Positions 7,618 to 26,500 of a stretch of DNA of 64,000 nucleotides are shown piece by piece. Source of the stretch: a virus; IMG/VR virus record IMGVR_UViG_3300035698_004199, positions 1-64,000 of that record; one strand, 5' to 3'. The position numbers and the translations under genes are program-made. Every line of letters begins with the position of its first letter. Position 1 is the stretch's first letter. Under the pieces are notes generated by a model that was not told the origin of the DNA, did not search any database, and worked only from the letters and a program-made list of their open reading frames with translations.

Positions 7618-8863
7618 TAAAAAATAAGAAATTACCATTACTGAGTTCTTGCTTCATTGAGATTTGCCTAACCAACCTAAATTGATCTGGTCTTACGACC
7701 CCTCCACAAGCGTTTAAAGTCTCCGGCAAACTGGCGGCGACTAAAATGTTTATAGAAGCATTGAGATCCGCGTTGATCTCAAAACCACAAGATTGACAGC
7801 TAAATTGAGCTTGGTTCTGTCTGTTTGCCTTTTCAGTGTGCCCACAAGACGAGCACCTTTGACTCGTATAGGCGGGGTTCACTGAAAGGATCTTACAGCC
7901 ATATAAGACTCCTTTATATTCAAGAAGCCTACGAAACTCACCCAATGAAGCGTCCAACATCACCCTGTTAAGCCCCCGCTTATGGGAACCTCCACCTTTA
8001 GTCATGTTCTTAATCTTCAAATCCTCAAGCACAATTAGACCGTGGCTTTTGGTCAACTGAGTTGAAGCTTTGTGCAAGTGATCCTTGCGAAGACTGCAAA
8101 CTTGACTATGTGTTTTTGCTAACAGAACCTTTACTTTCAATCTATTCCTCGATCCCTTTGTTTTTCTTGCTAAACTCCTTTGTAGCTTTTTTAGTTTTCT
8201 TTGGCTTTTAGCCAATGCCTTGGGGTTTTCAATAACTGTCCCATCAGATAGTGTAGCCAAACGAGAAACCCCCATGTCTAGACCTACTGCAGACAACCCA
8301 TTGCTAGAAATAGTCATTGCATCATCTGGACAGATTACTGAAACAAACCACCTATCATTTTGCTCAGACACTGTAATTTGTGCCGGTTTTCCAATAGATA
8401 GATAACCTCTTTCATTAGGCATTAGACGTACTTTGCCAATACGAGGTAGTTTTACAAAACACTCAGTTACAGTTATTGATCCTGAAAGTCTAAAACCACC
8501 AATCTTTAGTTTCTTGGATTTGAAACGGGGATATTTAGACCGGCCTTTAAGAAAACCTTTGAAAGCCACCTCTAAATCACGTAAGCCTTCATGCGGTGCA
8601 CATTTACTTACATCATACATCCAAGGGACTCCGCCAGTCTCTTTTGGCTGTTTCTTAAGTAGATTTAACTCACGGTGTAGAGAATAAGCATTCGGCCAAC
8701 CATCCCATTTTTTAGGTTTGTCAAGCAGCAGCCATTCTTGATAAGCTGCTTTGCAGCGTGACAAGCCCCAATTGTAGGCCCAACGGGACGCCCCTGCGTG
8801 TTGCCGCAAGGTTTCTTTTTGCCGTTTGGTGGACCGTAGTTCTACTTTGTGGGCCAGTTTCAC
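7604..8863 (-). CDS. tnpB: TnpB RNA-guided nuclease
   Basis: A 419-aa protein with GTG start at 8863 overlapping the TAG of the upstream small gene (TAGTG). An N-terminal helical/HTH region precedes a complete RuvC-type nuclease: Asp196 in GLDMG, Glu280 in IVLED and Asp366 in NADLN. It also has the zinc-finger pairs CSSC (337-340) and CQSC (356-359) and the family motif VNPAYTSQRC. All catalytic residues are present, so it is plausibly active as an RNA-guided DNA endonuclease that helps the element persist. The C-terminus runs slightly into the conserved right end. Length is normal for the family. Confidence 0.95.
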   Translation of the reverse strand: MKLAHKVELRSTKRQKETLRQHAGASRWAYNWGLSRCKAAYQEWLLLDKPKKWDGWPNAYSLHRELNLLKKQPKETGGVPWMYDVSKCAPHEGLRDLEVAFKGFLKGRSKYPRFKSKKLKIGGFRLSGSITVTECFVKLPRIGKVRLMPNERGYLSIGKPAQITVSEQNDRWFVSVICPDDAMTISSNGLSAVGLDMGVSRLATLSDGTVIENPKALAKSQRKLKKLQRSLARKTKGSRNRLKVKVLLAKTHSQVCSLRKDHLHKASTQLTKSHGLIVLEDLKIKNMTKGGGSHKRGLNRVMLDASLGEFRRLLEYKGVLYGCKILSVNPAYTSQRCSSCGHTEKANRQNQAQFSCQSCGFEINADLNASINILVAASLPETLNACGGVVRPDQFRLVRQISMKQELSNGNFLFFKGAM

Positions 8864-8997
8864 TAGTCTTTAGCCATCTCTTTTAGAACGATTGTTCGGA
8901 CTACTTGAGCTAATGAGCTGTGTCTTTTTTCAGCTTCCAATTTGAGCCAAGCAAGCATGTCAGGATGCAGGGTTACTTTAGTACTGATTTTTTTCAT
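8863..8997 (-). CDS. 44-aa ribbon-helix-helix protein in tnpB operon
   Basis: ATG 8997 with AGAAGGAG upstream; stop TAG 8865-8863 overlaps the tnpB GTG. The product begins MKKISTKVTLHPDMLAWL and continues with LEAEKRHSS and LAQVVRTIVLKEMA. This is a short beta strand followed by two helices, the pattern of Arc/CopG/MetJ-type ribbon-helix-helix DNA-binding proteins. Tight coupling suggests that it autoregulates the operon or binds the element ends. It is too short for most gene callers. The link to tnpB is seen; the regulatory role is inferred. Confidence 0.75.
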   Translation of the reverse strand: MKKISTKVTLHPDMLAWLKLEAEKRHSSLAQVVRTIVLKEMAKD

Positions 8998-9039
8998 GGG
9001 GGTACTCCTTCTACCAATTGGGAAATTATAGGCCCATTA

Positions 9040-9076
9040 TTGAGCTGCTAGTAGGGTGCCTGCTAGCAAGGTTCAA
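9040..9076. repeat. Imperfect hairpin, candidate left end of the TnpB element
   Basis: The arms TTGAGCTGCTAGTAGG and CCTGCTAGCAAGGTTCAA pair with one wobble and small bulges around a GTG loop. It lies between the small DNA-binding gene's ribosome site and the fibre gene's 3' end, where the element's left end should be. A terminator for the fibre gene is the alternative, but there is no T-run. Confidence 0.45.
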
Positions 9077-9115
9077 ATAAGCCTACACCTACTTTACCCA
9101 AGTTTTAGCGAACTG

Positions 9116-10831
9116 TTAGCAACCCTTTACATAAACATCAAAAGAGGCTCCTGTGGGTGTAATGGTTAGCTGACGTGTTGCAGACGAGTAGCTCAGTGTG
9201 ACATAATAGTTTCCAGAAGAGTCTACGGGCCAACCTTGAAGGGGTTGATTGCCCCTAGAGAGGACGCTATTGCCAACACGAGTAAGACTCTCAGTATCAT
9301 TAACAACACCTATAGCTAGGCTTGTAGGGCCTCCAGATTCAGTAATCTTAGAAACGGCTGGATTAGGATAAGTGCTTCCAAGTAAATCACCACCAGCGGC
9401 CCCGGTAGGCACTCTACTATCTGCTAACCTTGCATCCGTAGTGGTTACATAAGTGTTTAGAGCAGTTGGGGCACCAAAAGATCCCGCTAAAGCTGCTTTT
9501 TGATCAGAAGTAGGAATAAAAGTATGATTATAAGCCAATTCGTGTGCTGCTCGTTGTCCTGTAACAGTTGCAACCGCAACCCCGTTAATTTGTGCGACAG
9601 TGGGGTTTGGGTACGTGCTTCCAAGCAGATCACCACCAGCAGCACCAGAAGGAGCCCTGCTATCTGACATTCTCGCATCAGTGGTCGTAACAAAGGTGTT
9701 TCCCGCCCCGGGGGCACCAAAAGACCCCGCTAAAGCTGCTTTTTGATCAGAAGTAGGGATTAAAGTGTGGTTATAAGCCAATTCGTGAGCAGTTCGTTGT
9801 CCTGTGACAGTTGCGACTGCAACCCCGTTAATTTGTGCAACTGTGGGGTTTGGATAAGTACTTCCAAGCAGATCCCCTCCGGCAGCACCAGAAGGACTGC
9901 GTGGGTTGCTCATTCTCGCATCAGTGGTCGTAACAAAGGTGTTTCCAGCCCCCGGAGTACCGAAAGACCCCGCTAGTGCAGCTTTTTGATCAGAAGTAGG
10001 GATTAAAGTGTGGTTATAAGCCAATTCGTGTGCTGTTCGTTGCCCTGTGACAGTTGCGACTGCAACCCCGTTAATTTGTGCGACAGTGGGGTTTGGGTAA
10101 GTACTTCCAAGCAGATCACCACCAGCAGCACCAGAAGGAGCCCTGCCATTTGTCATTCTTGCGTCTGTGGACGTAACATAGGTGTTTGCAGCCCCCGGAG
10201 CACCAAAAGATCCCGCTAGTGCAGCCTTTTGATCTGAAGTAGGAATTAAAGTGTGATTATAGGTTAATTCGTGTGCAGTACGTTGCCCAGCAACAGTTGC
10301 AGCCGCAACTCCGCTTACAAAAGCTATAACAGGGTTTGGATAGGTGCTTCCAAGCAGATCCCCCCCAGCAGCTCCTACAGGAGCCCTGCCATTTGTCATT
10401 CTTGTGTCCGAGGAAGTTACATATGGATTTATTGCGCTCGGGGCACCGGAAGTTCCTGCTAAAGCAGCTTTTTGTACAGTAGACGGGATGTCTACATGTA
10501 GGTAGGCCACTTCGTGTGCTGCTCTTTGCCCTGCAACGGTTGCAGCAGCAACACCACCTACAAGGGCTACTGTTGGGGTGGGGTAATGCCCACTTAAGTC
10601 ACCAGCAGCAGCCCCAGTCGTGGGCCTGCTGTCTGTCATACGAGCATCGCTGTTTGTAACATACTTGTTAGCAGCACTGGGAGCACCATCAGTGCCAACC
10701 AGTGCACCCTTTTCGTTTGCACTTGGAAGTGTGGCATGGGCAAAGGCAGCTTCATGTGCTGTACGTTGTCCTGCAACAGCAGCAGTACCATCTATAAGAT
10801 CTACCGTAGGGTCTGGGTAAGCACCGCCCAA
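9116..10831 (-). CDS. Tail-fibre repeat protein, probably 5'-truncated
   Basis: 571 aa from TTG 10831, the only start-like codon in the open frame (which extends to 10876 and reads ADPAGPAGGD before the TTG). It has six tandem repeats of about 81 aa plus part of a seventh. Each repeat opens with GGDLLGSTYPNPTVA, a motif common in tail fibres and surface repeat proteins, and continues with GQRTAHELAYNHT..P, QKAALAGSFGAP and TDARM. A unique C-terminal domain of about 75 residues follows (GYYVTL-like beta strands). Collagen-like residues before the TTG and the lack of an ATG suggest that the N-terminal part is missing. It is opposite to the structural genes and could be a silent or exchangeable fibre cassette. 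Confidence 0.65.
   Translation of the reverse strand: MGGAYPDPTVDLIDGTAAVAGQRTAHEAAFAHATLPSANEKGALVGTDGAPSAANKYVTNSDARMTDSRPTTGAAAGDLSGHYPTPTVALVGGVAAATVAGQRAAHEVAYLHVDIPSTVQKAALAGTSGAPSAINPYVTSSDTRMTNGRAPVGAAGGDLLGSTYPNPVIAFVSGVAAATVAGQRTAHELTYNHTLIPTSDQKAALAGSFGAPGAANTYVTSTDARMTNGRAPSGAAGGDLLGSTYPNPTVAQINGVAVATVTGQRTAHELAYNHTLIPTSDQKAALAGSFGTPGAGNTFVTTTDARMSNPRSPSGAAGGDLLGSTYPNPTVAQINGVAVATVTGQRTAHELAYNHTLIPTSDQKAALAGSFGAPGAGNTFVTTTDARMSDSRAPSGAAGGDLLGSTYPNPTVAQINGVAVATVTGQRAAHELAYNHTFIPTSDQKAALAGSFGAPTALNTYVTTTDARLADSRVPTGAAGGDLLGSTYPNPAVSKITESGGPTSLAIGVVNDTESLTRVGNSVLSRGNQPLQGWPVDSSGNYYVTLSYSSATRQLTITPTGASFDVYVKGC
9116..10831 (-). repeat. Tandem 243-bp repeats in fibre gene
   Basis: Units of about 243 bp (81 codons) begin at each GGDLLGSTYPNP-type motif. 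Units 4 and 5 are nearly identical at the DNA level, which suggests recent unequal recombination. The outer units have diverged. Confidence 0.8.
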
Positions 10832-10952
10832 ATCACCACCAGCGGGGCCTGCAGGGTCAGCCCCCTTAAGAAACCCTTACCTAATAGCTAGATAAATATA
10901 AACAATATAAACAGCCGAGTCGGTTGATTAGTTATAGGAAAGCCTTTGTTGA

Positions 10953-10987
10953 GGTCCTATGGTTTCGCCTCTTTTTCCCATAGGGCC
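10953..10987 (+). promoter_or_regulatory. Leader stem-loop before 11010 gene
   Basis: GGTCCTATGG (10953-10962) pairs with CCATAGGGCC (10978-10987) with one G-T pair, around a 15-nt loop containing TTTTT. It lies 22 bases before ATG 11010. It begins the rightward neck/tail operon and could be a processing or regulatory hairpin, or a remnant end of the inserted fibre segment. Confidence 0.45.
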
Positions 10988-11009
10988 TCACTTTAAGAGG
11001 AGCTATTCT

Positions 11010-11228
11010 ATGGGATACAGACAATTATCAGACATACGGGTGTACGAGTATGTGCTAGAAGACGGCACAGTAGTCTGGTCTTTTACCAAATCACCGAATC
11101 TAGTAACACCGCCACAACGTATGTCCCTGCAAAACAAACACGGACTTCTTCTATCCTCCTTTATTGGAGGTCTTAGAAAAGAAGGCATGGCACTTTTACG
11201 CGGTGCTGAAGAAGATGATGTTGGGTAA
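11010..11228 (+). CDS. Small protein at the start of the neck operon
   Basis: A 72-aa protein with ATG 11010 and AAGAGGAG upstream; the in-frame extension to 10959 runs through the leader hairpin. It contains a short beta segment (YEYVLEDGTVVWSF) and a helix with an acidic C-terminus. The family is not recognised. Its position as first gene of the rightward structural block is the only functional clue. Confidence 0.6.
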   Translation: MGYRQLSDIRVYEYVLEDGTVVWSFTKSPNLVTPPQRMSLQNKHGLLLSSFIGGLRKEGMALLRGAEEDDVG

Positions 11229-11275
11229 TATAGAGTAGATTCTATTGTGGAATAAATTTAAAAAGGAGAACACAG

Positions 11276-11614
11276 ATGACTGACAAGATGCCCGAAGTAG
11301 CAGGTGAGACACCCCAGGATCCCAACATTGTGGGGACACTGAACGAAGAAGAAATGCAGACCTTGTTTGGTTTGCGGCAGCAGGGAAGCCAGATCACTAT
11401 GGAGATTGGTTCCTTGGAGCTTCGCAAGGCAAAGTTTTTGGGGGACATGGCCCGAGTGGAACAGAAGGGACAGGAACTTCTGCAATCCGTAGGAAAACGC
11501 TTGAATTTGGATGACCAGTCTTGGCAGGTATTGCCTGACGGTTGTATCCGAATGGTAGTTTTGGATACAGCTCCTGAAGCGGAGACTGCTAAGGAGACTG
11601 CGAAGGAAGGCTAG
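11276..11614 (+). CDS. Small helical protein before neck proteins
   Basis: A 112-aa protein with AAAAGGAG upstream of ATG 11276. Residues about 23-75 form a long amphipathic helix or coiled coil (MQTLFGLRQQGSQITMEIGS, then QKGQELLQSVGKRL). A short beta segment (WQVLPDGCIRMVVLD) and an Ala/Glu-rich end follow. The stop is directly followed by the next ATG. Many phages have a similar small helical gene beside head-tail joining proteins; the family itself is not recognised. Confidence 0.6.
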   Translation: MTDKMPEVAGETPQDPNIVGTLNEEEMQTLFGLRQQGSQITMEIGSLELRKAKFLGDMARVEQKGQELLQSVGKRLNLDDQSWQVLPDGCIRMVVLDTAPEAETAKETAKEG

Positions 11615-13027
11615 ATGACGCAAGGATGGGACCCCACTCCCGGACAGGTAATTTACCCACCTCAGAATGGTCAAGTGACTTCACCCTTTCAACAGGGTGT
11701 CCACGACATACACTGGGACAACCCGGCATTATTGGGGGGTAACTCTCAATTTGTCGTGGTTGGGGTGAATATCTATAGATCTGATGTTTCAGATCGGGGT
11801 CCCTTTTTTCGTATTAACTCAGTTCCTCTAGGTGGCAACTTTTTCCGCGATGCCACTACTAATGAATACATTTACAAAGAGTCTGTACGGTGGGATACTG
11901 CTTGGGTTGCCAAGGGGGATGCTGCTAATAGTCGTAAGTGGGTTTTTAGAACTACAAGGCCCATAGTCAAACAAATCCCGGAAGGCCCCTTTCAGGTGGT
12001 TACGAATGCCAACCAACCTTCGGACATAACATTATATATAGATGGTGTGCAGGTTCCTGTGGATAGTTTGTTTGGCCCCACGGGTGATGTGACTTTGATA
12101 AATGTGCCAACCTTTAATGGTGTTACTGAGAAAAACGATCCCGCAGCAATTCCAACAGCAGCCAGTGTAGTAGAAGTTTCTTACTGGACAAATAGGAATC
12201 AAGTACGGTCTGGCTTAGGCAGCAACTTATTTTATAGGTTGACTACTGTAGTCCTAGACAGTACAACACCCAGTGGTTATCGTGAGTCTGAACTTCAGAA
12301 CACCCCGGTATTGACTCTGGGGGACGTGGAGAAAATAGATTACATTTGGCGGGAAGCTATTAGAAGGAATCACTGGATTCTGCAACAGGGTGGCGAACGT
12401 GTGAATGTGTTTATTAGGCGTCTATCAGGAATACCTTGTTATTGTGGTAAAGACGCTGAAACATATGAATACAATAAGCAGCCCTCAAATAGATGTACAA
12501 TCTGTTTTGGAACTGGTTTCATTGGCGGGTATGAGGGCCCCTATACAGTTATAATAGGTCCCGACGATTCTGAACGTCGCATCTCACAAGGCCCTAATGG
12601 GCGTAGACAGGAACACACTTATGAAGTTTGGACCGGACCATCCCCTGTGATTACCCAGCGTGACTTTATAGTTAAACTGACTAATGAGCGTTACAGCGTA
12701 GGCCCTGTGCGAAGACCCTCTAATAGAGGCAATAGGCTGCAGCAACACTTTAACATAGCCTATCTGGATGAGCAAGATGTTCGGTATTCAGTGCCTATTG
12801 ACGGAACAGTAAATTATACTTGGCCTGAGACTCGGTATGGCCTCCGTCATTACCCCCCCACACCTGTTGATGGACAGCCAGCAACAACTCAGTGGGCTGT
12901 ACCAGAAGTTCCTCTCTATCCTGTAGGGGCTTCTGCTGAGATCCCTATGGAAACACAGAAGGCGGGCACGCCGGATGAAAAAGAACAAAGAGGCCGTACA
13001 CCGGCTTGGGAAAACCAAAACACATAA
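11615..13027 (+). CDS. Neck/head-tail structural protein with CxC...CxxC cluster
   Basis: A 470-aa, mostly beta protein starting at the base after the previous stop, so coupled. Residues about 25-230 contain an FN3-like strand pattern (VGVNIYRSD...). A short helix (DYIWREAIRRNHWILQQGGE) leads to a Cys cluster (IPCYCG then NRCTICFGTGFIGGY). The CxC...CxxCxGTGxxGGY pattern resembles phage neck or connector proteins with a DnaJ-like zinc knuckle. The C-terminal part (about 310-470) is beta-rich. Placement before an HK97 gp10-like gene supports a neck role. Confidence 0.6.
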   Translation: MTQGWDPTPGQVIYPPQNGQVTSPFQQGVHDIHWDNPALLGGNSQFVVVGVNIYRSDVSDRGPFFRINSVPLGGNFFRDATTNEYIYKESVRWDTAWVAKGDAANSRKWVFRTTRPIVKQIPEGPFQVVTNANQPSDITLYIDGVQVPVDSLFGPTGDVTLINVPTFNGVTEKNDPAAIPTAASVVEVSYWTNRNQVRSGLGSNLFYRLTTVVLDSTTPSGYRESELQNTPVLTLGDVEKIDYIWREAIRRNHWILQQGGERVNVFIRRLSGIPCYCGKDAETYEYNKQPSNRCTICFGTGFIGGYEGPYTVIIGPDDSERRISQGPNGRRQEHTYEVWTGPSPVITQRDFIVKLTNERYSVGPVRRPSNRGNRLQQHFNIAYLDEQDVRYSVPIDGTVNYTWPETRYGLRHYPPTPVDGQPATTQWAVPEVPLYPVGASAEIPMETQKAGTPDEKEQRGRTPAWENQNT

Positions 13028-13925: not shown

Positions 13926-14486
13926 ATGAAAGAAGCAATTGTTAAGTGTCTCTGTGCTTTTCTAAAGTTAGCAGATCTAAACCTGGAACTAAAGCAAGGG
14001 GATGAAGTATCCTTGACTATGGGTGAGGTTATGAGTTCAAAAGACTTGAAGCGGGCTATTCGTTTCAGGGCTGTAACCATTACATATAGAAATGTATGTA
14101 AAGAACAGAGGCTCCCTTCTGAAGAAGTGAAGGCCCCTAAAGTGGTGCCACCCGTAATGAAGCCCCATCCCGTGGCAGCCCCTGTAAAAGCACCGGCAGT
14201 ACAACCACAGCCTTCAGTTATCCCAAACCTGGTACAGGAATTGAAAAAAGAAATGATGTCCGGGTTAAAGCAATTGTTACAAGAGCTGGCACCCCAAGTG
14301 ATTGCAGGCAAAACGACACAAGTTTCACAGGTTTCTCAGGATACTCCAATGTTTATTCCTAAAGGGATGGTGTCTAAGGACACTGCTTCTGTGAAAGTGA
14401 AAACAGAACAGTCTGATGGGGGCTCTTTGGATAATGCAGCTGCGGTTTTGAAGAAAGCCCGCAAGGGAGGTAAGAAAAATGACTAA
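13926..14486 (+). CDS. Neck/tail accessory protein with Pro-rich linker
   Basis: A 186-aa protein with ATG 13926 behind GAGGTAGTGAAT. The N-terminal domain (1-65) is helical/beta. A Pro/Ala/Val-rich linker (about 68-100) leads to a helix (LVQELKKEMMSGLKQLLQEL). The C-terminal segment (MFIPKGMVSKD...GGSLDNAAAVLKKARKGGKK) has a form common to uncharacterised phage structural proteins. The 3' end overlaps the actin-like gene by 8 bases (ATGACTAA). Function unknown. Confidence 0.55.
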   Translation: MKEAIVKCLCAFLKLADLNLELKQGDEVSLTMGEVMSSKDLKRAIRFRAVTITYRNVCKEQRLPSEEVKAPKVVPPVMKPHPVAAPVKAPAVQPQPSVIPNLVQELKKEMMSGLKQLLQELAPQVIAGKTTQVSQVSQDTPMFIPKGMVSKDTASVKVKTEQSDGGSLDNAAAVLKKARKGGKKND

Positions 14487-15492
14487 GGAAAAAACTTTGA
14501 CAGGATGCTCTATAGATGTGGGCACCATGAATTTTGTTTCTGCTCGTAGGACAGCCAATGGGATTGAGACTAAACGTATGCGGGACGTGTTTTTGGATCT
14601 CCCGGCTAATGCAAAGAAGATGCTCAAACTTTCAGGGACCTCTTTTGTAGACCGTGGTGATGAGGTGTTAATCCTTGGGGATGCTGCTATGGAGATGGCT
14701 AATGTTTTTGGTAGGGAGCCCAGACGGCCTCTGTCAGCAGGTATTATTTCAGCTTCAGAAGCAGACAGTCTTGAAGTGCTTGGACTGTTGGTCAAAAGTG
14801 TGTTGGGTGAGCCAAAGAAGAAAGGCGAGGTTTGTTACTTTTCTGTACCGGCTGCTCCTATAGACGATCCAGGAAAAGATATTGTTTATCACAAGGGTGT
14901 GTTTGAACGCATTATAAAGGAATGTGGGTACACACCGTTTGCAGGAAATGAGGCTATGGCACTCATCTATTCAGAGGCTGCAGCGGAAGGTTTCTCTGGA
15001 TTATCGTTGAGCTACGGGTGCGGAATGACCAACGCTGCACTTGCAATAAATACTATTGAGGGCTTGACTTTTGCAGTAGGACGGGGCGGTGACTTTATAG
15101 ATCGTGGGGCAGCCCAGTCTGTAGGGTCTACACAGGCTAGAGTATGTGCAATCAAAGAAGCGGGGTTTGATCTGAATAACCCAGATGGCCGTGTCCAGGA
15201 GGCCCTAGCTTTCTATTACAAGGCTCTTATAGAGTATACACTAGATAACATAGTAGCTCGCTTCAAGTCCATTGAAGGCCAGTTTGCGCTGTCTAAGCCC
15301 ATACCACTAATAATTTCAGGAGGTACGAGTTTGGCAGGTGGTTTTATGGAGTTCTTCGGTAAGGTGTTTGAGGAGCGTAGAAAGAAGTTTCCTATTGACA
15401 TATCTGAAATCAGGCAGGCTAACGAGCCACTAAATGCCGTGGCTTATGGGCTACTGGTTCAAGCAATGCAAGAAGGAGAAGATGATGACTGA
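14479..15492 (+). CDS. Actin/ParM-fold ATPase
   Basis: A 337-aa protein with the actin-superfamily layout. Phosphate-1 loop is IDVGTMNFV (12-20). Strand motif YFSVPAAP is at 120-127. Connect-1 is NEAMALIYSEAAA (157-169). Phosphate-2-like loop is LSLSYGCGMTNA (175-186). GGDFIDRGAA is at 203-212. The adenosine loop is IISGGTSLAGG (278-288). The usual Asp in phosphate-2 (D.G.GT) appears replaced by Ser, so ATPase activity may be altered. ParM/MreB-type relatives form filaments for DNA segregation or cell organisation. Here the gene overlaps neck genes on both sides, which is an odd setting. It could move virions or DNA, or act as an assembly factor. Confidence 0.75.
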   Translation: MTKEKTLTGCSIDVGTMNFVSARRTANGIETKRMRDVFLDLPANAKKMLKLSGTSFVDRGDEVLILGDAAMEMANVFGREPRRPLSAGIISASEADSLEVLGLLVKSVLGEPKKKGEVCYFSVPAAPIDDPGKDIVYHKGVFERIIKECGYTPFAGNEAMALIYSEAAAEGFSGLSLSYGCGMTNAALAINTIEGLTFAVGRGGDFIDRGAAQSVGSTQARVCAIKEAGFDLNNPDGRVQEALAFYYKALIEYTLDNIVARFKSIEGQFALSKPIPLIISGGTSLAGGFMEFFGKVFEERRKKFPIDISEIRQANEPLNAVAYGLLVQAMQEGEDDD

Positions 15493-17309: not shown

Positions 17310-17421
17310 CATCCTTCGTTTTTCCCTTGATACTTTTGTTTTAATAGTGTGGCAGGTCTATCCGGTCACTATGAAAATGTGAAGATTTTTTGGGCTTTAA
17401 CCTATGTATGCGAGGTACTCA

Positions 17422-20400
17422 ATGGCCTTTTCTGGAAGAAACTATGCTCCTCCTGGTATTTATACCCAGACAAATTTTGAAAACCCTTTGGGCTCTGCTT
17501 TAGAAAGCCTCAAAATCCCTGTGATTATCGGGGAAGGAAATGAGGACCTTTTCCAACAGGATTTGGAAGTGGTTAGAGGTTCCTCTGCTTCAGTAGATCA
17601 GCAAGTCGTTCAGGAGGATCAGACCGGAAGGGCTGTTTTCTCTATAAGTGCTGCTGGGGTTGTAACTAGGACAGCGTTTGATGGTGTCTTGGACAAATTC
17701 CAAGTAGTGAACCGCCCTATAGTTACAGGTGATGGCACCGGAACAACCACACTTAGCAGAAATGATATTGTGGTGACTGTAAATGATGAGCCTGTTGTGG
17801 TTCGTGCTATTACAGGCAGTACCGGTATAATTCAGCTGGCACAGGCACCTGTAGCGGGTGACCTTGTTCGTTGTACCTATTTCTTTAACAGAACAGACAC
17901 TCTTGTGCTTGATGATGTTTCAGAACAGGTGCCGAACAGAATGGCAACAGTTCGGGCCGTACAGGGCTTGGCTGATGTGGATAGCCATCTTGCAGGGACA
18001 AGCACCTTGGACCTTCATGGTGATATCCTAAACCCAACTACAGGGGCAGTGGTTACTCCTGCTAACAACGTCTTGAATCTGGTTGTAGACGGTACTGCTA
18101 GGTCTATCACACTGTCGGCTAAAACCGATTATACAATGGCTCAGGTAGCTGCTGCGATAATTGCTGCTCAGGCAGGAACTTTGCTGGCCAGTACCTTTAA
18201 TAACAACTATGGCATGTCTGCTTTGATGCTGACAGCAACTAACAGTCTTATTGTTAAGGCTGGTAGTGCAAATGGTGACATAGGTCTTGCAGATAATTCT
18301 GCTGACAATCGTACCAGTACCTTTTATGTGTTTAATGGACCAATTGTGGACGGAACCGGTGGCGGCGTTATTACTACCGATCCTTCCCATGTAACCGTAA
18401 GGGTTGCAGGTCGCCAGGTAATACCTACTGCTGTTGATGGTAGTACAAGAGCTGTTACTTTGGCTCAAGCCCCCGCTGCGGGTGTTACTGTTACTATTCA
18501 GTACTACTGGAATACTTGGCAAGACACTTTTGATTACCTTGCTCACATAGGGGTAACAAGTGTAAGTCGCTGTGGGACAGTTCCTGGAAGTACAGACTAC
18601 ACTGAGGATGCTGATTTTATTCTACAGAATGACAGAATCATGTGGGGTACAGCGGCAACTACAGAAGCAGGACTGAATACTGTAGGTGCGACAACCTTTG
18701 ATACTGCCCAGATCTCAATGACCTTGGTAGACAACAGGGTGTTTATGTCTCCTTGCACGTCACTTTCAGGTTTGACATTCCAACTTCCGCTAAACCCAAC
18801 TTTGGGCAATGGGCGTGACACACCTCTGGGCTCTAGCCTTTTCCAGACTCTCAGCAATGGAAGGATTGACCTTCCTGTTAACCGCCCTGATGTGATTTGG
18901 GCTTACTGGGGATATAGTGTTCAGGATGCTCTTAACAGAGGCAAGGTTGAAGTTATTAAAGTTGAGGGTATTGTCATCACCCTGAGCGAAACGGTCCCTA
19001 CAGGGGCCACAGTTTATGCTACTGCATATTACAATCAATTGACAGACAGTACTTATACACTGGCTTGCATAACAGAAGGCCCTATGGGCACCGGACAGTA
19101 TGGCATAACAGATGCCAATGCTGATGATGTCTATGCTCCTTATATGGTAGCAGGCAGCAAGGGTGCTGGACTGACAGGTATTACAGTTGAGTTCCCCAGT
19201 GGATCTGAGCTGCTTCCTGACTTCAGGTTTGAAGCTGGTTCGGGCAGTCTGTTTGTAGGCCCCAAAGAAGAGATTGTAACTGTTCAATTGGAAGAACGGG
19301 ATGCAACTTTGGCTAAGTATGTTCTTCCGGGAACTGCACCCTATGTGTTTATCCCCAGTGAGTCAGATCACCTGAGGCTTACATTACGTGCTGCTGACGT
19401 GTTTACAGCCACAGGCTTGGACCTTGGGTCTCCTTCAGCAGTGGCAGCTCACTCGGAGGGCTTTTTCTCTACTCTAGTAGGGTCTGAAATTTCTTATACA
19501 GGTACTCTGGCTGGAACTGTAGGTCAGACATTCACTACTACAGCAACAGAAAACCTTACTCTTAAAATAGATGGTGTGACTGTTCCAGTAGTGATACCGC
19601 CTACTACAGGGTTTGACGCATCTGATATGGTGGAACGTATCAACGATAGTGCGAGTGGTCATCATGGTGTGCCTGTTGGGTTGGGTGGTGCAAGCACTAT
19701 TCTGTTGGCATCTATAGCGTCAACTGCAGATGATTATTATGTGGGTTGGAAAGTTGTAATAGGAAATGGAGGGGCTGTAGGTGTGGCAACCCAGGAGACC
19801 CGTACTATAACAGCTTATGCTGGTGGTGTTACTCAGATAGCAACGGTTGACGTTCCTTGGACGGGAACACCACCTACAACCGCTGACACTTACTACATTT
19901 ACAATCCTGAAACTGTAGCTGTTATGACAGGGGCCACTAAGTTTAATAGTTCTGTAGAGATTGACGCAAACGATTTCAATCTTTTGAACTTTATCTATAC
20001 AGGAGATACCAACACTACTACTGGACCACTGGTTGCTACAATCTCATCTGCTACTTATGGGTCAGCCGCTCTATTAGCAGCACAAGTTGAAACCCAACTT
20101 GTAACCGCTGTCTCTACTATTTTGGGAGCAAGCCCCGAATTTACAGGCCTGACGATTTTCTGTGCTGCAAACTCAGAAGGTCAACTTGAATTTTCCATGC
20201 AGTTGCCTGGTGATGATAGTGCTGGTATGCTTGAATTTGTGGAAGATGCAACTCCTGCCAAGGACTTTGCTATTCTGGCAGGTTTGAGTACCGGTGCAGC
20301 AACTAATAGCAGTCAGACCGCTCTAATACAGGGGCCTGTGGCTTGGGCTTATGAATGCCCCGATTCTACCCATCTCAAGATTTATGACCGTTTGATTATC

Positions 20401-22638
20401 CGTGGCAGACTTCTACCCGGTGCTAGTACAGCTTCTATGGCTGCTGATGACACAGTATCTAATTGTGGTATTACAGTCACAGTGGGTAATGCTGCTTTGA
20501 CAGGCTTGGAAACTGGAGACTACGGTGTGGCAGGTTCCGGTGCAGTAGTACACGCAGCTACTATGGCAGGTGCTGTTGGTTTTGCGGGTGGGCAAGATCC
20601 CACCACTATGCAACCCCTAATAACTTTCTATGATGGCACAGGAACACAGGCTGCAAACAACGTGTTTGACTTTGAAATTGACGGGACTCCTGTATCTGTT
20701 ACTTTTACTGCAGGAGCAAAGCTGTTTGGACCGCAGACTGATGGAGCATCAGTTCTGGGCCTGATAGAGACAGCATTGACAGTTGCAGGCACTTCTATTA
20801 GGCAAGAGGGTGCTGGTTGGCGTCTGCTTTCAGGCAAAACAGATGCTCTTTCAAAGATTGTTATTGGATCTGGTTCTGCTAATAATGTCCTTGGGGTTTC
20901 TTCTGGTGCAACAGCACTTAGAAGTCTTGTATCAGTTCGGACACTTGCTTCAGCACTTATGGCAAACAAGGACACTTCTTTTGCAGATTGGGTTTTTGAT
21001 TTTACAAATATACCCGCAGGTGACACCTTTGTAAAATGGGGTCTGGCTTCTGTGATACAGGATGCTGCAGGTGCTGACTATGTAATGATTCAGGACGCTC
21101 CTATTTTAATAGCATCCTTGGGGCCTGCTTCTATAGTAACCCTAACAGCCCCAACCGCACAAAGCGTGTTGCTCTATAATACAGGCATAACAGGCCTAGC
21201 TGGTGACGGTGCTGTAGGCGATCCTGCTCTAAATGGATACTTTATAACTTCAAGCGATACCACTGGATCAGGTTCTTCCGGCACATCAATTCTGAATGCT
21301 GGTACAGGTCAGGACGGAATTGTAGGCCAAACTTACCACGACGATGTTACTGGTCTAACCTTTACTATTCTGCCTAGAGGCTGGAGTACAGATCAGCAAG
21401 GCCCCTGGGTTTCATACCCAACGGGTGCTACCGCAACTTTCAACATTCGCTGCTCTACAACCTTTACTACAGGGAATACCCCGCTCAACGCCATTCCAGG
21501 CCTTGAGCTGAAGGTTGCTAACACTTACGGTGTTGCTGTAGATGATACTGCTATAGTGACTACCTTTGAAAGATCCGGTGAAGAGCCTGGTATTGGTGAT
21601 CTCTACTATGTGTCTTATGTTTACAGCAAACAGGATTACGGTACACAGCTTTACACTAAGTTTGCTTCCATTGAGGCTGCTTATGGTACAGCCACTCCTG
21701 ATAGCCCTGTAACACTGGCCTCTTGGATGGCACAATCTAACGGTGCTGTTCTGGTTGGTATCAAACAGGTTGAACGGGAAGAAGGCTATGCACAGGCAAG
21801 CCTGACAACTTATCGAGATGCTGTAACTGAACTGGAAGGGATGCTTCCTGGTTTTGTATCTGCGGATATCTTGGTACCCCTTAGAGGAGACAGCATTGAT
21901 CTTTACAAGTTCATAAAAGCCTCTTGTGCTAAAATGTCTAGCTACAGGTACAAAGCAGAACGTACTGCAATTTTAGGTCTGCCTATGGGATCTCTTCCCC
22001 AGACTGTAATTACTACAGCCCGGACTTTGGCTGACACTCGTATGCGCTTGGTTTATCCTGACATGGGTGTTATTAACACTCAGGATAATGTGGGAGTAAC
22101 CAAGGAATACATCATTGATGGTACTTATATAGCTGCTGCCCTTACAGGTTCTATTGTGAGCCCTAATGTAGACGTTGCGACACCTTGGACAGGCCGTAGG
22201 CTGGTAGGCTTCACACAGCTTGCTAGGACTCTTGATTCAGTAGAGATGAATCAGATTGCACAGAACGGTGTTATCATCCTTGAAGATAAGCCTCCTTATC
22301 TCAGGGTACGTCACGGTTTGACTACAGACATGACAAATACGCTTACCAAGTTGCCTACTATCATTATGATTGCAGACGAAGTACAGCGTCAGTCCCGTAA
22401 CACTCTGGATTCCTTTATCGGCGTCAAGTTTATTCCGGGTATTGCAAGTCAGGTAGAAGGCCGTTTGTCAATGCTGCTTAAATCACTGGTAGCTGCTCAG
22501 ATTATCTCTGCTTATACCGGCGTTACAACCACTACTTCGCCCGACGATCCCACACAGCTTGATATCTCAGCTTACTGGGTTCCGATCTTCCCGCTGCTCT
22601 ACATACAAATCACCTTCGGTGTCCGTTCCGCTATCTAA
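17422..22638 (+). CDS. Giant tail sheath protein
   Basis: 1738 aa from ATG 17422, which has GCGAGGT upstream; ATG 17404 lacks a ribosome site. The N-terminus (APPGIYTQTN...LKIPVIIGEG) and the last 350 residues (from about YGTQLYTKF at 1395 to YIQITFGVRSAI) match contractile-tail sheaths, including the conserved LVGFTQLARTLDSVEMNQIAQ / GV...RV.HGLTTD region. Typical sheaths have 400-700 residues. Here about 1000-1200 residues of beta-rich modules are inserted. Some are repeats (V.VNDEPV.....G...LAQAPVAGD). Others are hook- or flagellin-like (LVVDGTARSITL then TMAQVAAAI). They probably decorate the outside of the tail. Confidence 0.9.
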   Translation: MAFSGRNYAPPGIYTQTNFENPLGSALESLKIPVIIGEGNEDLFQQDLEVVRGSSASVDQQVVQEDQTGRAVFSISAAGVVTRTAFDGVLDKFQVVNRPIVTGDGTGTTTLSRNDIVVTVNDEPVVVRAITGSTGIIQLAQAPVAGDLVRCTYFFNRTDTLVLDDVSEQVPNRMATVRAVQGLADVDSHLAGTSTLDLHGDILNPTTGAVVTPANNVLNLVVDGTARSITLSAKTDYTMAQVAAAIIAAQAGTLLASTFNNNYGMSALMLTATNSLIVKAGSANGDIGLADNSADNRTSTFYVFNGPIVDGTGGGVITTDPSHVTVRVAGRQVIPTAVDGSTRAVTLAQAPAAGVTVTIQYYWNTWQDTFDYLAHIGVTSVSRCGTVPGSTDYTEDADFILQNDRIMWGTAATTEAGLNTVGATTFDTAQISMTLVDNRVFMSPCTSLSGLTFQLPLNPTLGNGRDTPLGSSLFQTLSNGRIDLPVNRPDVIWAYWGYSVQDALNRGKVEVIKVEGIVITLSETVPTGATVYATAYYNQLTDSTYTLACITEGPMGTGQYGITDANADDVYAPYMVAGSKGAGLTGITVEFPSGSELLPDFRFEAGSGSLFVGPKEEIVTVQLEERDATLAKYVLPGTAPYVFIPSESDHLRLTLRAADVFTATGLDLGSPSAVAAHSEGFFSTLVGSEISYTGTLAGTVGQTFTTTATENLTLKIDGVTVPVVIPPTTGFDASDMVERINDSASGHHGVPVGLGGASTILLASIASTADDYYVGWKVVIGNGGAVGVATQETRTITAYAGGVTQIATVDVPWTGTPPTTADTYYIYNPETVAVMTGATKFNSSVEIDANDFNLLNFIYTGDTNTTTGPLVATISSATYGSAALLAAQVETQLVTAVSTILGASPEFTGLTIFCAANSEGQLEFSMQLPGDDSAGMLEFVEDATPAKDFAILAGLSTGAATNSSQTALIQGPVAWAYECPDSTHLKIYDRLIIRGRLLPGASTASMAADDTVSNCGITVTVGNAALTGLETGDYGVAGSGAVVHAATMAGAVGFAGGQDPTTMQPLITFYDGTGTQAANNVFDFEIDGTPVSVTFTAGAKLFGPQTDGASVLGLIETALTVAGTSIRQEGAGWRLLSGKTDALSKIVIGSGSANNVLGVSSGATALRSLVSVRTLASALMANKDTSFADWVFDFTNIPAGDTFVKWGLASVIQDAAGADYVMIQDAPILIASLGPASIVTLTAPTAQSVLLYNTGITGLAGDGAVGDPALNGYFITSSDTTGSGSSGTSILNAGTGQDGIVGQTYHDDVTGLTFTILPRGWSTDQQGPWVSYPTGATATFNIRCSTTFTTGNTPLNAIPGLELKVANTYGVAVDDTAIVTTFERSGEEPGIGDLYYVSYVYSKQDYGTQLYTKFASIEAAYGTATPDSPVTLASWMAQSNGAVLVGIKQVEREEGYAQASLTTYRDAVTELEGMLPGFVSADILVPLRGDSIDLYKFIKASCAKMSSYRYKAERTAILGLPMGSLPQTVITTARTLADTRMRLVYPDMGVINTQDNVGVTKEYIIDGTYIAAALTGSIVSPNVDVATPWTGRRLVGFTQLARTLDSVEMNQIAQNGVIILEDKPPYLRVRHGLTTDMTNTLTKLPTIIMIADEVQRQSRNTLDSFIGVKFIPGIASQVEGRLSMLLKSLVAAQIISAYTGVTTTTSPDDPTQLDISAYWVPIFPLLYIQITFGVRSAI

Positions 22639-22656
22639 GCCTTTCACACATAACTT

Positions 22657-22690
22657 AAGAAATCCTCCTTTACAGGGGATTTCTTTGTAA
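22657..22690 (+). terminator. Terminator after sheath gene
   Basis: AAGAAATCC and GGATTTCTT form a 9-bp stem with an 11-nt loop, 19 bases after the sheath stop. The trailing T-run is short, so read-through may occur. Confidence 0.6.
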
Positions 22691-22707
22691 AAAGATTAAG
22701 ACACCTC

Positions 22708-22735
22708 TTGACAGTGGCGGTTTCATGGGTATATT
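22708..22735 (+). promoter_or_regulatory. Sigma70-like promoter for MerR/vWA cassette
   Basis: A perfect TTGACA (22708-22713) is followed after 16 bases by TATATT (22730-22735), 26 bases before ATG 22761 with TAGGAGG between. This is the clearest host-type promoter in the window. Confidence 0.7.
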
Positions 22736-22760
22736 AGATTGAGGTTAGGAGGACCGAATT

Positions 22761-23147
22761 ATGCAATACACAATGCAAGAGTTATCAGAGGCCGCGGGAG
22801 TTCCAGGCCGCACAATCCGTTATTACATTTCTGAAGGTTTGCTTCAGGGGCCCACTATGCTAGGGTCAAAAGCCAACTATACGGAAGAGCACCGGCAGAA
22901 ATTAGAAAAGATCAAAAAGCAAAAAGAGCAAGGCCAATCTTTACAAGAGATTCAATTTGCTCAGCTACAAGACTTTGGAATAGTTTTACCTGAACCAGTT
23001 TGTGGTTGCGTTTGGGAAGAATACCTTGTGGCAAACAATATGTGGTTTAGATTGAAGGTGGGTTGTTTACCCCCGCATAAGAAACGTCAGGTTTTGAAAA
23101 TCTTGGCTAAATTCATTAAGTCTATCAAAGAGGAGATTGACAAATGA
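22761..23147 (+). CDS. MerR-family transcription regulator
   Basis: 128 aa. The N-terminal winged helix-turn-helix (YTMQELSEAAGVPGRTIRYY then GLL) is a typical MerR DNA-binding domain, followed by the family helix (EEHRQKLEKIKKQKEQGQSL). The C-terminal part (about 75-128) has CGC and one further Cys (VGCLPP) and a basic helix but no known ligand domain. It has TAGGAGG before the ATG and its own promoter. ATGA overlap couples it to the VIT-vWA gene. It may regulate that promoter, since MerR proteins bind between -35 and -10 elements, although the 16-bp spacing is shorter than typical MerR targets. Confidence 0.8.
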   Translation: MQYTMQELSEAAGVPGRTIRYYISEGLLQGPTMLGSKANYTEEHRQKLEKIKKQKEQGQSLQEIQFAQLQDFGIVLPEPVCGCVWEEYLVANNMWFRLKVGCLPPHKKRQVLKILAKFIKSIKEEIDK

Positions 23148-25531
23148 AAACAGAAAGAACAGGGTTGTTTAATTCTAATGGTGGGGCTGTCCGTTTGGCA
23201 ATGGAACGTGTGGAACTGACAGGTCAAGTAGGACCTACAGGTGGCGTCCTAACCTTGTTGCACAGCTTCAAGTGTGCGGAAAAATCACCAATGGAAGCTG
23301 TTTATGTGTTCCAACTGCCCAGAGGTGGAGTGATTAGGCGTTTCAAAGTAAAGGGGGAAGACTTTGAAGTTGAATCCGAACTGAAACCCAAAGTAGAAGC
23401 ACGTGAAACATATGAGGCGGGCATTGAAGCAGGACACCAGTCTACATTGCTAGAGACAGGACCAGATGGTTTGATCTCTTTAATGGTGGGGCAAGTGCAG
23501 CCGGATGAATCTATTGTTGTAGCAGTAGAGCTTGTTTGTGGTGTTGAACTGCGGGATTCAGAATACAGGTTCCGGTTCCCATTGACTCTAGCACCCAACT
23601 ACCATTCAAATTCGACCAGTTACAATAGTTCCCAGGGCTTGAAGATAGAAATGCCAGCAAAGATTTTTGGGGATCTGTTGCTTCCTACTTGGGTTGACAC
23701 TAATAGTGAAACACATGAGATCCGTTGTAATCTTCGGGTGGCTGCTTTGGGCCAAATGGGGAAAGTTTCTTCCATCTCTCACAATATAGGTGTAACACCA
23801 AACTCAGACGGATCCGCAGATATTAGTTTGATGGTTGGAAGTCAAAAGGATTGTGATAGAGACTTTGTTCTGGACGTACAGACAAAGACATTAGCACCCT
23901 GCTTATTTGCAGATGAATCCTTGCTGGCCTTTAAAGAGCAAGAGCCCGGTAAGCCCCGGTGGCTTGTAAGCATCCCTGCTGAAACAATTCCTGCTCAAGA
24001 AGCGGCTAGTAGGGATGTCGTGTTTTTACTGGATCAATCCTACTCTATGAAAGGTTCTAGACTTAACCAAGCCAAAGCAGCTTTGAAGGCTTGTCTTTCT
24101 GCTCTGAATCCAACAGATAGGTTTGGGCTGCTCAGCTTTAATAATGTGGTAAAACAGTTTCATGACACTATGGCTAAAGCAACAGATACAAACAGAAAAA
24201 GGGCTGACAAGTTTCTAGAGGGGCTTATTGCGGATTCCGGTACAGGATTGTTAGAAGCTCTAGGTCAGGCAGTAGCATTGGCAGGGCATGATGGCGATAT
24301 CTTTTTGCTTACAGATGGGGAGGTTTACGAAACGGGTTCTATTATTCAAAACACAGCCCAAGCGGGATGTAAGGTACATGTTCTTGGGGTTGGAGACGCC
24401 TCTCAGGATCGTTTTCTAGCACAACTAGCTGCTAAAACAGGCGGTCTTCAGAAGATGGCAAACAGTAATGAAAACGTAGCAGAATCCGCTTTGGAATTGT
24501 TTTCTGCTGTTAAAAGCCCAAAGCAACAGAATGTAGTGGCAAAGGTTTTCGGTTCAGGAAAGCCTTTGTCTATCAAGGTAGGGCATGTATGGAGTGGTAG
24601 ACCTATATTGCTTAGAGATGAAAGCAATCAGGCATCCTTTATCCCTACTAAGGTAGAACTATCCTGGGGTGCAAAAGAAAAGACACAGGTCCTTTTGACA
24701 GAACAGAAGATCATGCCTGATGATGTGTTGGCTTTAGCATGGGCAGGGAAGCAGGTTGAAGATATGGAAGCAGCTTTAGACAGTGCAGCACAAGGCCCTG
24801 CATATGTAGCTCTCAATCGGAAACTGAAAGACTTGTCTATAAAGTATGGCTTGGCTTCCCGTGTCATGTCGCTGTGTGCTGTGATGAAACGTGTGGGTGA
24901 CATTGCAGGGGAAACTTCAAAGCAAGTGATTTGCCCTGTAAAAATGCCTTGGGATCGCAGTAAGACAGAGCTTATTTGTTGTGCTTGCAATTCTAGTATG
25001 GATTTCGCCCCAACGGTTACTTATCATCGGATTTGCAGCGGGGGTGATGCCTTGACAAATAGAGGCCTTCTCCCTATAGCACAGAATAGTAGTCGTTTCT
25101 GTGATATAGGGGGCGGTGGTAGCTGGGGCGGTGGCTGGGGCGGTGATGTTTCAGCAGCGAGTCTTCCAATGCTTGTAGAAGACTGTGATAGTTGCACACT
25201 TGAAGAGGACTGTTATAGTTCTTTGATTGACTATGTGGGATGTCTGCAGGCAGATGGTAGTGTACCTAATACAAATAGAGAAACCTCTGTACTCAAAACT
25301 TTGTTGCTGGCAATTCTGATCAAACAATCAAACCAAGCATTTATTTTTGCATCTCATATGAAAAAAATGCTGGTCTTTCTGAAAGCCAATCAAGATTTTA
25401 CTTGGGTTCCGGGAGTTGTATCCTTTTTGGAAAGCGATAAAAACCCGCACAGCCTTATAGATTGGGATGTTGAATATAAGACGGCACAAGTCATGACACC
25501 CGCATTAGAAAGCTACCTGCAACAGCTTTAG
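23144..25531 (+). CDS. VIT-vWA domain protein
   Basis: 795 aa. Residues about 10-150 form a VIT domain (AVYVFQLPRGGVIRRF, ARETYEAGI, LLETGPDGLISL). Residues about 290-455 form a von Willebrand A domain with an intact metal site: D297-Q-S299-Y-S301, a later Thr in DSGTGLLEAL, and Asp in LLTDGEV. Residues about 590-640 hold LKDLSIKYGLASRVMS, common after vWA in this family. A Cys pair (CCAC), a Gly/Trp-rich stretch (near 657-668) and a helical C-terminus follow. VIT-vWA proteins mediate metal-dependent protein contacts. In phage, between sheath and tube genes, the role is unknown; it looks like an inserted cassette rather than a tail part. Confidence 0.85.
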   Translation: MKTERTGLFNSNGGAVRLAMERVELTGQVGPTGGVLTLLHSFKCAEKSPMEAVYVFQLPRGGVIRRFKVKGEDFEVESELKPKVEARETYEAGIEAGHQSTLLETGPDGLISLMVGQVQPDESIVVAVELVCGVELRDSEYRFRFPLTLAPNYHSNSTSYNSSQGLKIEMPAKIFGDLLLPTWVDTNSETHEIRCNLRVAALGQMGKVSSISHNIGVTPNSDGSADISLMVGSQKDCDRDFVLDVQTKTLAPCLFADESLLAFKEQEPGKPRWLVSIPAETIPAQEAASRDVVFLLDQSYSMKGSRLNQAKAALKACLSALNPTDRFGLLSFNNVVKQFHDTMAKATDTNRKRADKFLEGLIADSGTGLLEALGQAVALAGHDGDIFLLTDGEVYETGSIIQNTAQAGCKVHVLGVGDASQDRFLAQLAAKTGGLQKMANSNENVAESALELFSAVKSPKQQNVVAKVFGSGKPLSIKVGHVWSGRPILLRDESNQASFIPTKVELSWGAKEKTQVLLTEQKIMPDDVLALAWAGKQVEDMEAALDSAAQGPAYVALNRKLKDLSIKYGLASRVMSLCAVMKRVGDIAGETSKQVICPVKMPWDRSKTELICCACNSSMDFAPTVTYHRICSGGDALTNRGLLPIAQNSSRFCDIGGGGSWGGGWGGDVSAASLPMLVEDCDSCTLEEDCYSSLIDYVGCLQADGSVPNTNRETSVLKTLLLAILIKQSNQAFIFASHMKKMLVFLKANQDFTWVPGVVSFLESDKNPHSLIDWDVEYKTAQVMTPALESYLQQL

Positions 25532-25547
25532 TCCGTTAATTCCTTTA

Positions 25548-25595
25548 TGCCCTCGCAATTTATGTAGTGGTTTTTTGAAATAAATTGCGAGGGCA
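25548..25595. promoter_or_regulatory. Perfect 16-bp inverted repeat after VIT-vWA gene
   Basis: TGCCCTCGCAATTTAT (25548-25563) and ATAAATTGCGAGGGCA (25580-25595) are perfectly complementary around a 16-nt loop rich in T. There is no T-run after the stem. It marks the 3' edge of the MerR/vWA cassette and could be a terminator-like RNA hairpin, an mRNA end protector, an operator or a recombination remnant. Confidence 0.6.
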
Positions 25596-25693: not shown

Positions 25694-26500
25694 ATGCCAA
25701 ACCAAGACCTTAATAGTTCAACAACGGGTGTAGGGGGTTCATCTTACATTTATAACATGGGCACATCACCTGAGACCCGTGTAGCTGTGTCAACGAAAGT
25801 ACGCATTCTCACACCTCATTATGGGAACAATGAAGCCATGTCCCAAATGGGTGTTGTTTCACAGTTTTCTCCTAGTATGAGTAAAAGTGTGGAGCCTGTT
25901 CGTGGGGTGGGTTTTGGTGATACCATTGCAGAGAATGTACCATCAGTAACCGACCCTGTAAATGGAAGCTTTGAAAGAGCACTGCTCTATCTATGCAACC
26001 TATGGCAGGCTACTGGCTATGCTTCTGGTATTGATGGCCCTGTGCGTAGTTTAGCACACCACAGATGGCCCTTTGATATTGAACAGCAAATTGTCTTTTC
26101 AACTTTGGCTGATGCTGATCTTGGAGCAGAGAGTACTGGGGCTTCCGGTATTGGTGTACAAGGCGGTATGAAAGCAGTTTCCTTCCCACCGGTAACAGGC
26201 GTTACCAATAGCTTGGGTCACACTGCAGTTATTACTATTTACGAAGCATGCTGGTTTACGGATTGGAATACTTCTTTCGCACGTGATTCAGGAATGATTC
26301 TTGAAAGCGGGCAGATTATTGGAACTTCTGTACATGACTTTTCTTCTGTTTATGGAGAGTTCATGGCTTCAGGTAATGATCCCACAATCGGCCAGCTTGG
26401 ATCTTTAAGGTTCCTGAGTGATTCTATCCAGAATCCTGTAGGACAGGCTGGTGGCGGTGTTGGCGGCGGTGGTCAGAAACAGTCTTATGTGACTGTGTAA
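25694..26500 (+). CDS. Tail tube protein
   Basis: 268 aa from ATG 25694 with GGAGG upstream; the TTG at 25679 is ignored. Beta-rich with VSQFSPSMSKSVEPVRGVGFGD, PSVTDPVNGSFERALLYL and a HHRWPFDIEQQIVFS segment, a pattern of tube proteins in large phages, and a Gly-rich end. Its position after the sheath (with the cassette between) and before chaperone-position and tape-measure genes fits the inner tube. It should stack as hexameric rings inside the sheath. Confidence 0.7.
   Translation: MPNQDLNSSTTGVGGSSYIYNMGTSPETRVAVSTKVRILTPHYGNNEAMSQMGVVSQFSPSMSKSVEPVRGVGFGDTIAENVPSVTDPVNGSFERALLYLCNLWQATGYASGIDGPVRSLAHHRWPFDIEQQIVFSTLADADLGAESTGASGIGVQGGMKAVSFPPVTGVTNSLGHTAVITIYEACWFTDWNTSFARDSGMILESGQIIGTSVHDFSSVYGEFMASGNDPTIGQLGSLRFLSDSIQNPVGQAGGGVGGGGQKQSYVTV

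What the first reader, a model, noticed from the sequence alone, without database searches (positions are those of the whole stretch)
22657..25595. MerR plus VIT-vWA cassette with its own promoter between sheath and tube
Sheath and tube genes are normally neighbours. Here a terminator, a near-consensus sigma70 promoter, a MerR regulator and a VIT-vWA protein with intact metal site, ended by a perfect 16-bp inverted repeat, separate them. This is the layout of a moron, a self-contained accessory cassette. vWA proteins often act in conflict and stress systems, so host takeover, superinfection exclusion or defence are possible. I know of no described MerR/VIT-vWA pair of this kind.
Basis: partly seen in the sequence, partly recalled or inferred. 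Interest (0 to 1): 0.8.

Follow-up and report, generated by a model that had tools for sequence, protein, structure and literature searches.

The report
Phage-borne MerR and VIT-vWA gene pair
Between two tail genes of a giant phage sits a small self-regulated two-gene unit, shared with free-living bacteria, that makes a predicted intracellular protein-binding hub like human VWA5A; it has been inherited and repeatedly lost in one phage lineage, so it is probably an accessory gene for manipulating the host, but its task is unknown.

Summary
In a 74-kb phage fragment, a MerR regulator (22761-23147) and a VIT-vWA protein with intact metal site (23144-25531, 4-bp overlap) separate tail sheath from tube, behind an 11/12 sigma70 promoter. 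The pair is not unique. It sits in the same gap in about 17 related phage lineages, never one gene without the other, and as an operon in Hydrogenedentota chromosomes and Pseudomonadota genomes and plasmids. The sheath-tube gap is an insertion hotspot (131 bp to 9.1 kb). The pair was gained once at the base of one phage clade, inherited vertically, and lost or decayed several times: accessory, yet under purifying selection. New here: the promoter itself is conserved. It is TTGACA[G/C]T plus TATAAT at 16-18 bp; in bacteria the -35 lies in a dyad, TTGACA-C-TGTCAA. In 68 Hydrogenedentota genomes the strict form occurs only in front of this pair. I infer that the MerR protein represses its own operon. 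The product has the architecture of intracellular VWA5A/Vwa1 proteins (ITIH-like core, disordered loop, helical C-terminal domain). Defence, superinfection exclusion and host takeover remain untested; a MoxR-vWA tail chaperone is unlikely. The 16-bp hairpin is real but not conserved.

The parts
17404..22638 (+). Tail sheath gene (1744 aa), upstream boundary
   Evidence: tblastn to annotated sheaths, E 5e-167 to 1e-48 for the best
22657..22686 (+). Weak terminator-like hairpin after the sheath gene
   Evidence: not above shuffled expectation
22708..22735 (+). Sigma70-type promoter TTGACA-16-TATATT; TTGACAGTGGC is the conserved -35/probable MerR operator core
   Evidence: 11/12; conserved upstream of merR in 22 of 29 pairs against 0.6% background; TTGACAGTGGC found in 144 loci only at this promoter
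22761..23147 (+). MerR-type regulator (128 aa): winged HTH plus small beta-hairpin/long-helix C-terminal part; probable autorepressor
   Evidence: Pfam E 1.7e-14; AlphaFold pLDDT 91.5; HTH matches CadR, PbrR, CvkR, HiNmlR
23144..25531 (+). VIT-vWA protein (795 aa): ITIH-like VIT/hybrid/vWA core (20-597), disordered loop (598-690), helical C-terminal domain (688-763); MIDAS D297, S299, S301, T367, D391
25548..25595 (.). 16-bp perfect inverted repeat with 16-nt loop, role unknown, not conserved
25694..26500 (+). Tail tube-like virion protein, downstream boundary
   Evidence: 62-68% identical to the same gene in most pair-bearing relatives, 55% in one; position next to the sheath

Best explanation
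It is an accessory (moron-like) two-gene operon, related to an operon of free-living bacteria, resident in the sheath-tube insertion hotspot of one clade of large myoviruses. A host-type sigma70 promoter drives it. The MerR protein binds the TTGACA-centred site over the -35 box and represses the operon until an unknown cue or protein partner releases it (inferred). The VIT-vWA product stays in the cytoplasm and works as a metal-dependent (MIDAS) protein-binding hub of the VWA5A/Vwa1 kind, possibly held inactive by its C-terminal domain, binding a host or competitor component during infection (inferred). Shown by sequence: gene pair, promoter conservation, domain architecture, ancestry, losses, selection. 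Not shown: DNA binding, expression timing, target, benefit.
For: Pair conserved and always together in the sheath-tube gap; no VIT-vWA elsewhere in the no-pair phages searched, records up to 497 kb. One gain inside a 21-genome clade plus losses: 6 changes on the tree against 13 in shuffles; VIT distances follow tail-gene distances (Mantel r 0.87, p 0.0002). Decayed copies in L072/L074 and L083/L084, each seen in two metagenomes. Purifying selection: VIT dN/dS about 0.16-0.27, MerR 0.20-0.29 where measurable. MIDAS kept in all intact copies. Conserved promoter/dyad; strict form found 5 times in 68 genomes, all before this pair, reversed control 0. Spacers of 16-18 bp, not the 19-20 bp of metal-responsive MerR activators (general knowledge). 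Bacterial operons. Structure, matching the VWA5A/Vwa1 architecture described in PMC10539598.
Against: In phages the right half of the dyad is mostly degraded (TTGACAGTGGC) or replaced by direct GACAGT repeats, so the operator assignment is weaker there than in bacteria. Three of 18 phage copies lack the exact core (L063, L105, L006). Long vertical retention (one gain) is more than a typical moron shows. No 3' insulation of the tube gene is evident. No target or phenotype is known.
Confidence: 0.55

Rival explanations
1. Virion-assembly factor: the vWA protein is a tail-assembly co-chaperone or structural part, which is why it sits between sheath and tube.
For: Fixed position in the tail operon in all carriers; MoxR-vWA pairs are proposed for virion assembly in jumbo phages, citing a MoxR-vWA system required for the Acidianus two-tailed virus tail (PMC7824862); ATV ORF892 is a weak fold match.
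Against: No MoxR (AAA_3) in the window's record or in the 435, 142 and 109 kb relatives. Several close relatives lack or have lost it with tail genes in place. Bacterial chromosomes carry the operon with no phage structural genes around. It has its own conserved sigma70 promoter and regulator.
Confidence: 0.15
2. Anti-competitor device: superinfection exclusion or anti-phage defence, with MerR restraining a harmful VIT-vWA effector.
For: Tight pairing with a putative autorepressor; decayed copies lose VIT-vWA while MerR stays open; MerR HTH resembles mad1 of the MADS defence system; MerR-type CvkR represses a CAST system (PMC9938897); one plasmid copy lies near an AbiEii-like gene and a DNA methyltransferase.
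Against: No nuclease, NADase, pore or other effector domain in the VIT-vWA protein; no PADLOC match for it; the bacterial neighbourhoods inspected by eye are ordinary chromosome, not defence islands.
Confidence: 0.2
3. Regulated stress or housekeeping protein of bacteria picked up by the phage with no conflict role, for example a scaffold that stabilises the host cell during long infection.
For: Bacterial homologues on chromosomes in ordinary contexts; VWA5A/Vwa1 relatives are intracellular interaction hubs, Vwa1 acting with an F-box protein (PMC10539598).
Against: No stress regulon evidence; patchy distribution even in bacteria (10 of 68 genomes).
Confidence: 0.2
4. Neutral passenger in an insertion hotspot.
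For: The gap holds many unrelated inserts and the pair is lost repeatedly.
Against: dN/dS well below 1 for both genes, conserved promoter and MIDAS.
Confidence: 0.04

Closest known systems
MerR + 'VIT and VWA domain-containing protein' operons of bacteria (Massilia sp. H6 NRS07_RS20095/RS20090; Aquabacterium olei DEH84_RS17505/RS17500; Hydrogenedentota)
   Same: Same gene order, overlapping or near-touching frames, MIDAS, and TTGACA promoter/dyad in Hydrogenedentota and Massilia
   Different: Not in a phage tail operon; Pseudomonadota proteins are distant (24-29% identity) and on a separate long branch. I found no paper describing the pair
Intracellular VIT-vWFA proteins VWA5A/BCSC-1 and Dictyostelium Vwa1 (PMC10539598)
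   Same: VIT, hybrid and vWA core, helices, disordered loop, helical C-terminal domain, no evident signal peptide
   Different: Eukaryotic, not paired with a MerR regulator; binding partners unknown here
Inter-alpha-trypsin inhibitor heavy chain 1 (PDB 6FPY)
   Same: Best solved structural match over the core (E 1e-32)
   Different: Secreted and linked to matrix; 13-14% identity
CvkR, MerR-type repressor of type V-K CAST (PMC9938897)
   Same: MerR-type repressor of an accessory module, short palindrome with one central base, no metal cysteine sensor
   Different: Represses cas12k and tnsB; different C-terminal domains; motif AnnACATnATGTnnT
MoxR-vWA chaperone pairs of jumbo phages (PMC7824862)
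   Same: vWA protein in large phages
   Different: No MoxR here; VIT domain instead of peptidase
VIT-vWA proteins of giant eukaryotic viruses (Terrestrivirus, Fadolivirus, Tupanvirus)
   Same: Only near full-length structural matches among viral models (TM about 0.55-0.60)
   Different: Viruses of eukaryotes; MerR partner not looked for there

Membership tests
Moron (accessory phage cassette) | Own promoter | tested here: met
   Conserved promoter
Moron (accessory phage cassette) | Own terminator insulating it from flanking genes | tested here: inconclusive
   Weak 5' hairpin; 3' hairpin lacks a T-tract and is not conserved
Moron (accessory phage cassette) | Absent from close relatives at the same site | tested here: met
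   34 of 50 sheath-tube gaps lack it, including sisters inside the carrier clade
Moron (accessory phage cassette) | Dispensable for lytic growth | not testable with these tools
   Several losses and two decayed lineages suggest it
Moron (accessory phage cassette) | Expressed independently of late genes | not testable with these tools
   Needs transcriptomics
Intracellular VIT-vWFA (VWA5A/Vwa1-like) | VIT + vWA with MIDAS | tested here: met
Intracellular VIT-vWFA (VWA5A/Vwa1-like) | ITIH-like fold including hybrid domain | tested here: met
Intracellular VIT-vWFA (VWA5A/Vwa1-like) | Disordered loop then helical C-terminal domain | tested here: met
   Residues 598-690 pLDDT under 50, helices 688-763; homology of this domain to VWA5A not tested
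Intracellular VIT-vWFA (VWA5A/Vwa1-like) | No signal peptide | tested here: met
   N-terminus MKTERTGLFNSNGGAVRLAM read by eye; no predictor was run
Marine sortase-target protein TIGR03788 | Score above the curated cut-off | tested here: not met
   226 bits against a cut-off of 552
MerR family | MerR winged HTH | tested here: met
Metal-responsive MerR activators | 19-20 bp promoter spacer and C-terminal metal cysteines | tested here: not met
   Spacer 16-18 bp; cysteines of the window protein not conserved in the alignment; equivalog cut-offs not reached
MoxR-vWA chaperone | Partner MoxR ATPase | tested here: not met
MADS defence system | The other mad genes present beside mad1 | tested here: inconclusive
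   Only the MerR HTH matches mad1; the neighbours were scanned with Pfam, not PADLOC, and are tail, hypothetical and mobile-element proteins

The most novel reading that the evidence does not exclude
MerR-VIT-vWA is an undescribed, widespread two-gene prokaryotic module, autorepressed at a dedicated dyad promoter, whose VWA5A-like hub works in biological conflict; one lineage of giant phages has domesticated it as a host-control or superinfection-exclusion device.
Probability: 0.25. Interest if true: 0.75.

Novelty: new variant of a known kind. Interest (0 to 1): 0.5.

Why it matters
No match to this VIT-vWA protein was found in PHROGs (nothing below E 0.06), in 50,697 annotated phage genomes, or near full length among phage proteins of BFVD. 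The pair gives a compact, testable prokaryotic relative of a poorly understood eukaryotic family (VWA5A, PARP4, ITIH). It comes with a regulator and a predicted single-target operator that can be tested quickly by gel shift, and it marks the sheath-tube gap as an insertion hotspot in these phages.

Tried and rejected
Single-protein scans for VIT-vWA in viral contigs and in annotated phages found nothing; profile and neighbour searches were needed. PHROGs and PADLOC gave no useful family. Free movement of the cassette between phages rejected by the single-gain tree and the distance correlation. MoxR-vWA chaperone rejected. Metal-sensor MerR rejected. The 3' inverted repeat as a conserved boundary rejected. 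A phage-wide TTGACAGT promoter class rejected for the window: 4 matches against 3.1 expected, only this one intergenic. Rhodobacterales and Pseudomonadota samples held few close relatives (1 of 101, 2 of 398). The MerR tree was too weak to use.

Full report
OBSERVATION. The window is part of a 74,291-bp phage record. Sheath 17404-22638, MerR 22761-23147 and VIT-vWA 23144-25531 overlap by ATGA, then comes the tube-like gene at 25694-26500. Domain matches are strong. The promoter TTGACA-16-TATATT (22708-22735) is the best of 13 promoter-like sites in 6 kb. The upstream hairpin is weak. The 16-bp perfect inverted repeat is real but not followed by T residues and not found as such in relatives.

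SAME PAIR ELSEWHERE. Eleven sheath relatives and eleven VIT-vWA relatives came from viral contigs. Every VIT-vWA locus had MerR directly upstream, and the tube gene downstream wherever the contig reached that far. A tube-profile scan gave 423 relatives, of which the best 80 were kept. Fifty distinct sheath-tube gaps could be measured: 16 with the pair (counting decayed copies), 34 without; MerR and VIT-vWA were never found apart. Gap length runs from 131 bp to 9.1 kb. Other inserts include a ROS/MucR-type protein, DNA methyltransferases, PLD-like, HD, calcineurin-like and AAA proteins. No-pair phages, with records up to 497 kb, have no VIT-vWA elsewhere, though the records may be incomplete.

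CORE OR ACCESSORY. On the tail-gene tree the pair lies inside one 21-member clade (support 98); 6 changes suffice against 13 in shuffles, that is, one gain and several losses. Two lineages keep MerR but have a VIT-vWA gene that lost its vWA or nearly all of its core; each was seen in two metagenomes. VIT-vWA distances follow tail-gene distances (Mantel r 0.87, p 0.0002). dN/dS is 0.16-0.19 for VIT-vWA in the closest phage comparisons and 0.20 for MerR in the one measurable phage comparison. So it is dispensable, old, vertically inherited and selected.

BACTERIA. Ten of 68 Hydrogenedentota genomes have close relatives. MerR sits directly upstream wherever enough sequence is available. The same pair is annotated on plasmids of Aquabacterium olei and Massilia sp. 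H6 and occurs in another Pseudomonadota genome. Phage proteins form one group (92/97) next to the Hydrogenedentota group (98/97); the direction of transfer is not resolved.

PROMOTER. TTGACA followed by G/C and T occurs just upstream of merR in 22 of 29 pairs, against 0.6% of background windows; one more (L051) shows it by direct reading. Spacing to the -10 is 16-18 bp. In Hydrogenedentota the site is a dyad, TTGACACTGTCAA, over the -35. Among 68 genomes the strict dyad-promoter pattern has five exact matches, all in front of this pair; the reversed control has none. The phage form TTGACAGTGGC appears in 144 fetched loci only at this promoter. Inference: MerR is a local autorepressor. Comparable MerR-type repressors with short palindromes exist (CvkR, PMC9938897). 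The binding itself is not shown.

STRUCTURE. MerR: pLDDT 91.5, winged HTH, then a beta-hairpin and long helix; only the HTH region aligns well with CadR, PbrR, CvkR and HiNmlR. VIT-vWA: confident core, disordered 598-690, helical C-terminal domain. Best PDB match ITIH1. Near full-length viral matches only in giant viruses of eukaryotes. The architecture is that of VWA5A/Vwa1, for which a CTD-mediated autoinhibition of the vWA domain has been proposed from models (PMC10539598). MIDAS residues are kept in all intact copies.

FUNCTION. I favour an accessory, repressor-controlled intracellular binding hub used against or within the host. A tail chaperone role is unlikely without MoxR and given the losses. 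A defence or exclusion role is possible but untested.

LIMITS. Phage records are metagenomic fragments. Loci were the best-scoring 80 of 423, so frequencies describe the nearest relatives only. The MerR tree is unresolved. Homology of the C-terminal domain to that of VWA5A was judged by architecture, not by a direct test. Tail sheath comes from annotation of relatives; 'tube' is by position.

Noticed in passing
window 14479-15489: Strong Pfam Volactin match (actin-fold family, E 1.2e-67) in the tail gene region of a phage.
   Followed up: no
window 6815-11674, - strand: A minus-strand island in the structural region with a CinA-domain protein, a TnpB (OrfB_IS605/Cas12f1-like) and a second HTH_OrfB protein; an imperfect 17-bp inverted repeat lies at 7336-7389.
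   Followed up: no
window 17404-22638: Sheath of 1744 aa against 579 aa in phage G; only about the last 390 residues align with phage G, so the sheath carries a very large extra region.
   Followed up: no
L063 6480-7205; L081 6657-7343; L088 6545-7273: MerR is fused to an N-terminal T5orf172/MUG113 (GIY-YIG-like) domain (Pfam for L081; L063 and L088 by sequence likeness). L081/L082 VIT-vWA are 77% identical but their MerR only 35%, as if the regulator had been swapped.
   Followed up: partly
L072 7093-8247; L083 8630-8959: Decayed VIT-vWA genes beside an open MerR reading frame with a TTGACA promoter.
   Followed up: partly
L002 14994-15566: In LR745208 the sheath-tube gap encodes a protein with a signal-like N-terminus and a HELGHALGLQH zinc-protease motif, no Pfam match.
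   Followed up: no
L054 7413-8342 and L055 6970-7899: A conserved open frame (MSNSFL..., with ankyrin-like repeats in L054) follows the bacterial VIT-vWA gene on the same strand in two related Hydrogenedentota genomes.
   Followed up: no
window 42648-54722: A single 4024-aa open reading frame in the tail/baseplate region.
   Followed up: no
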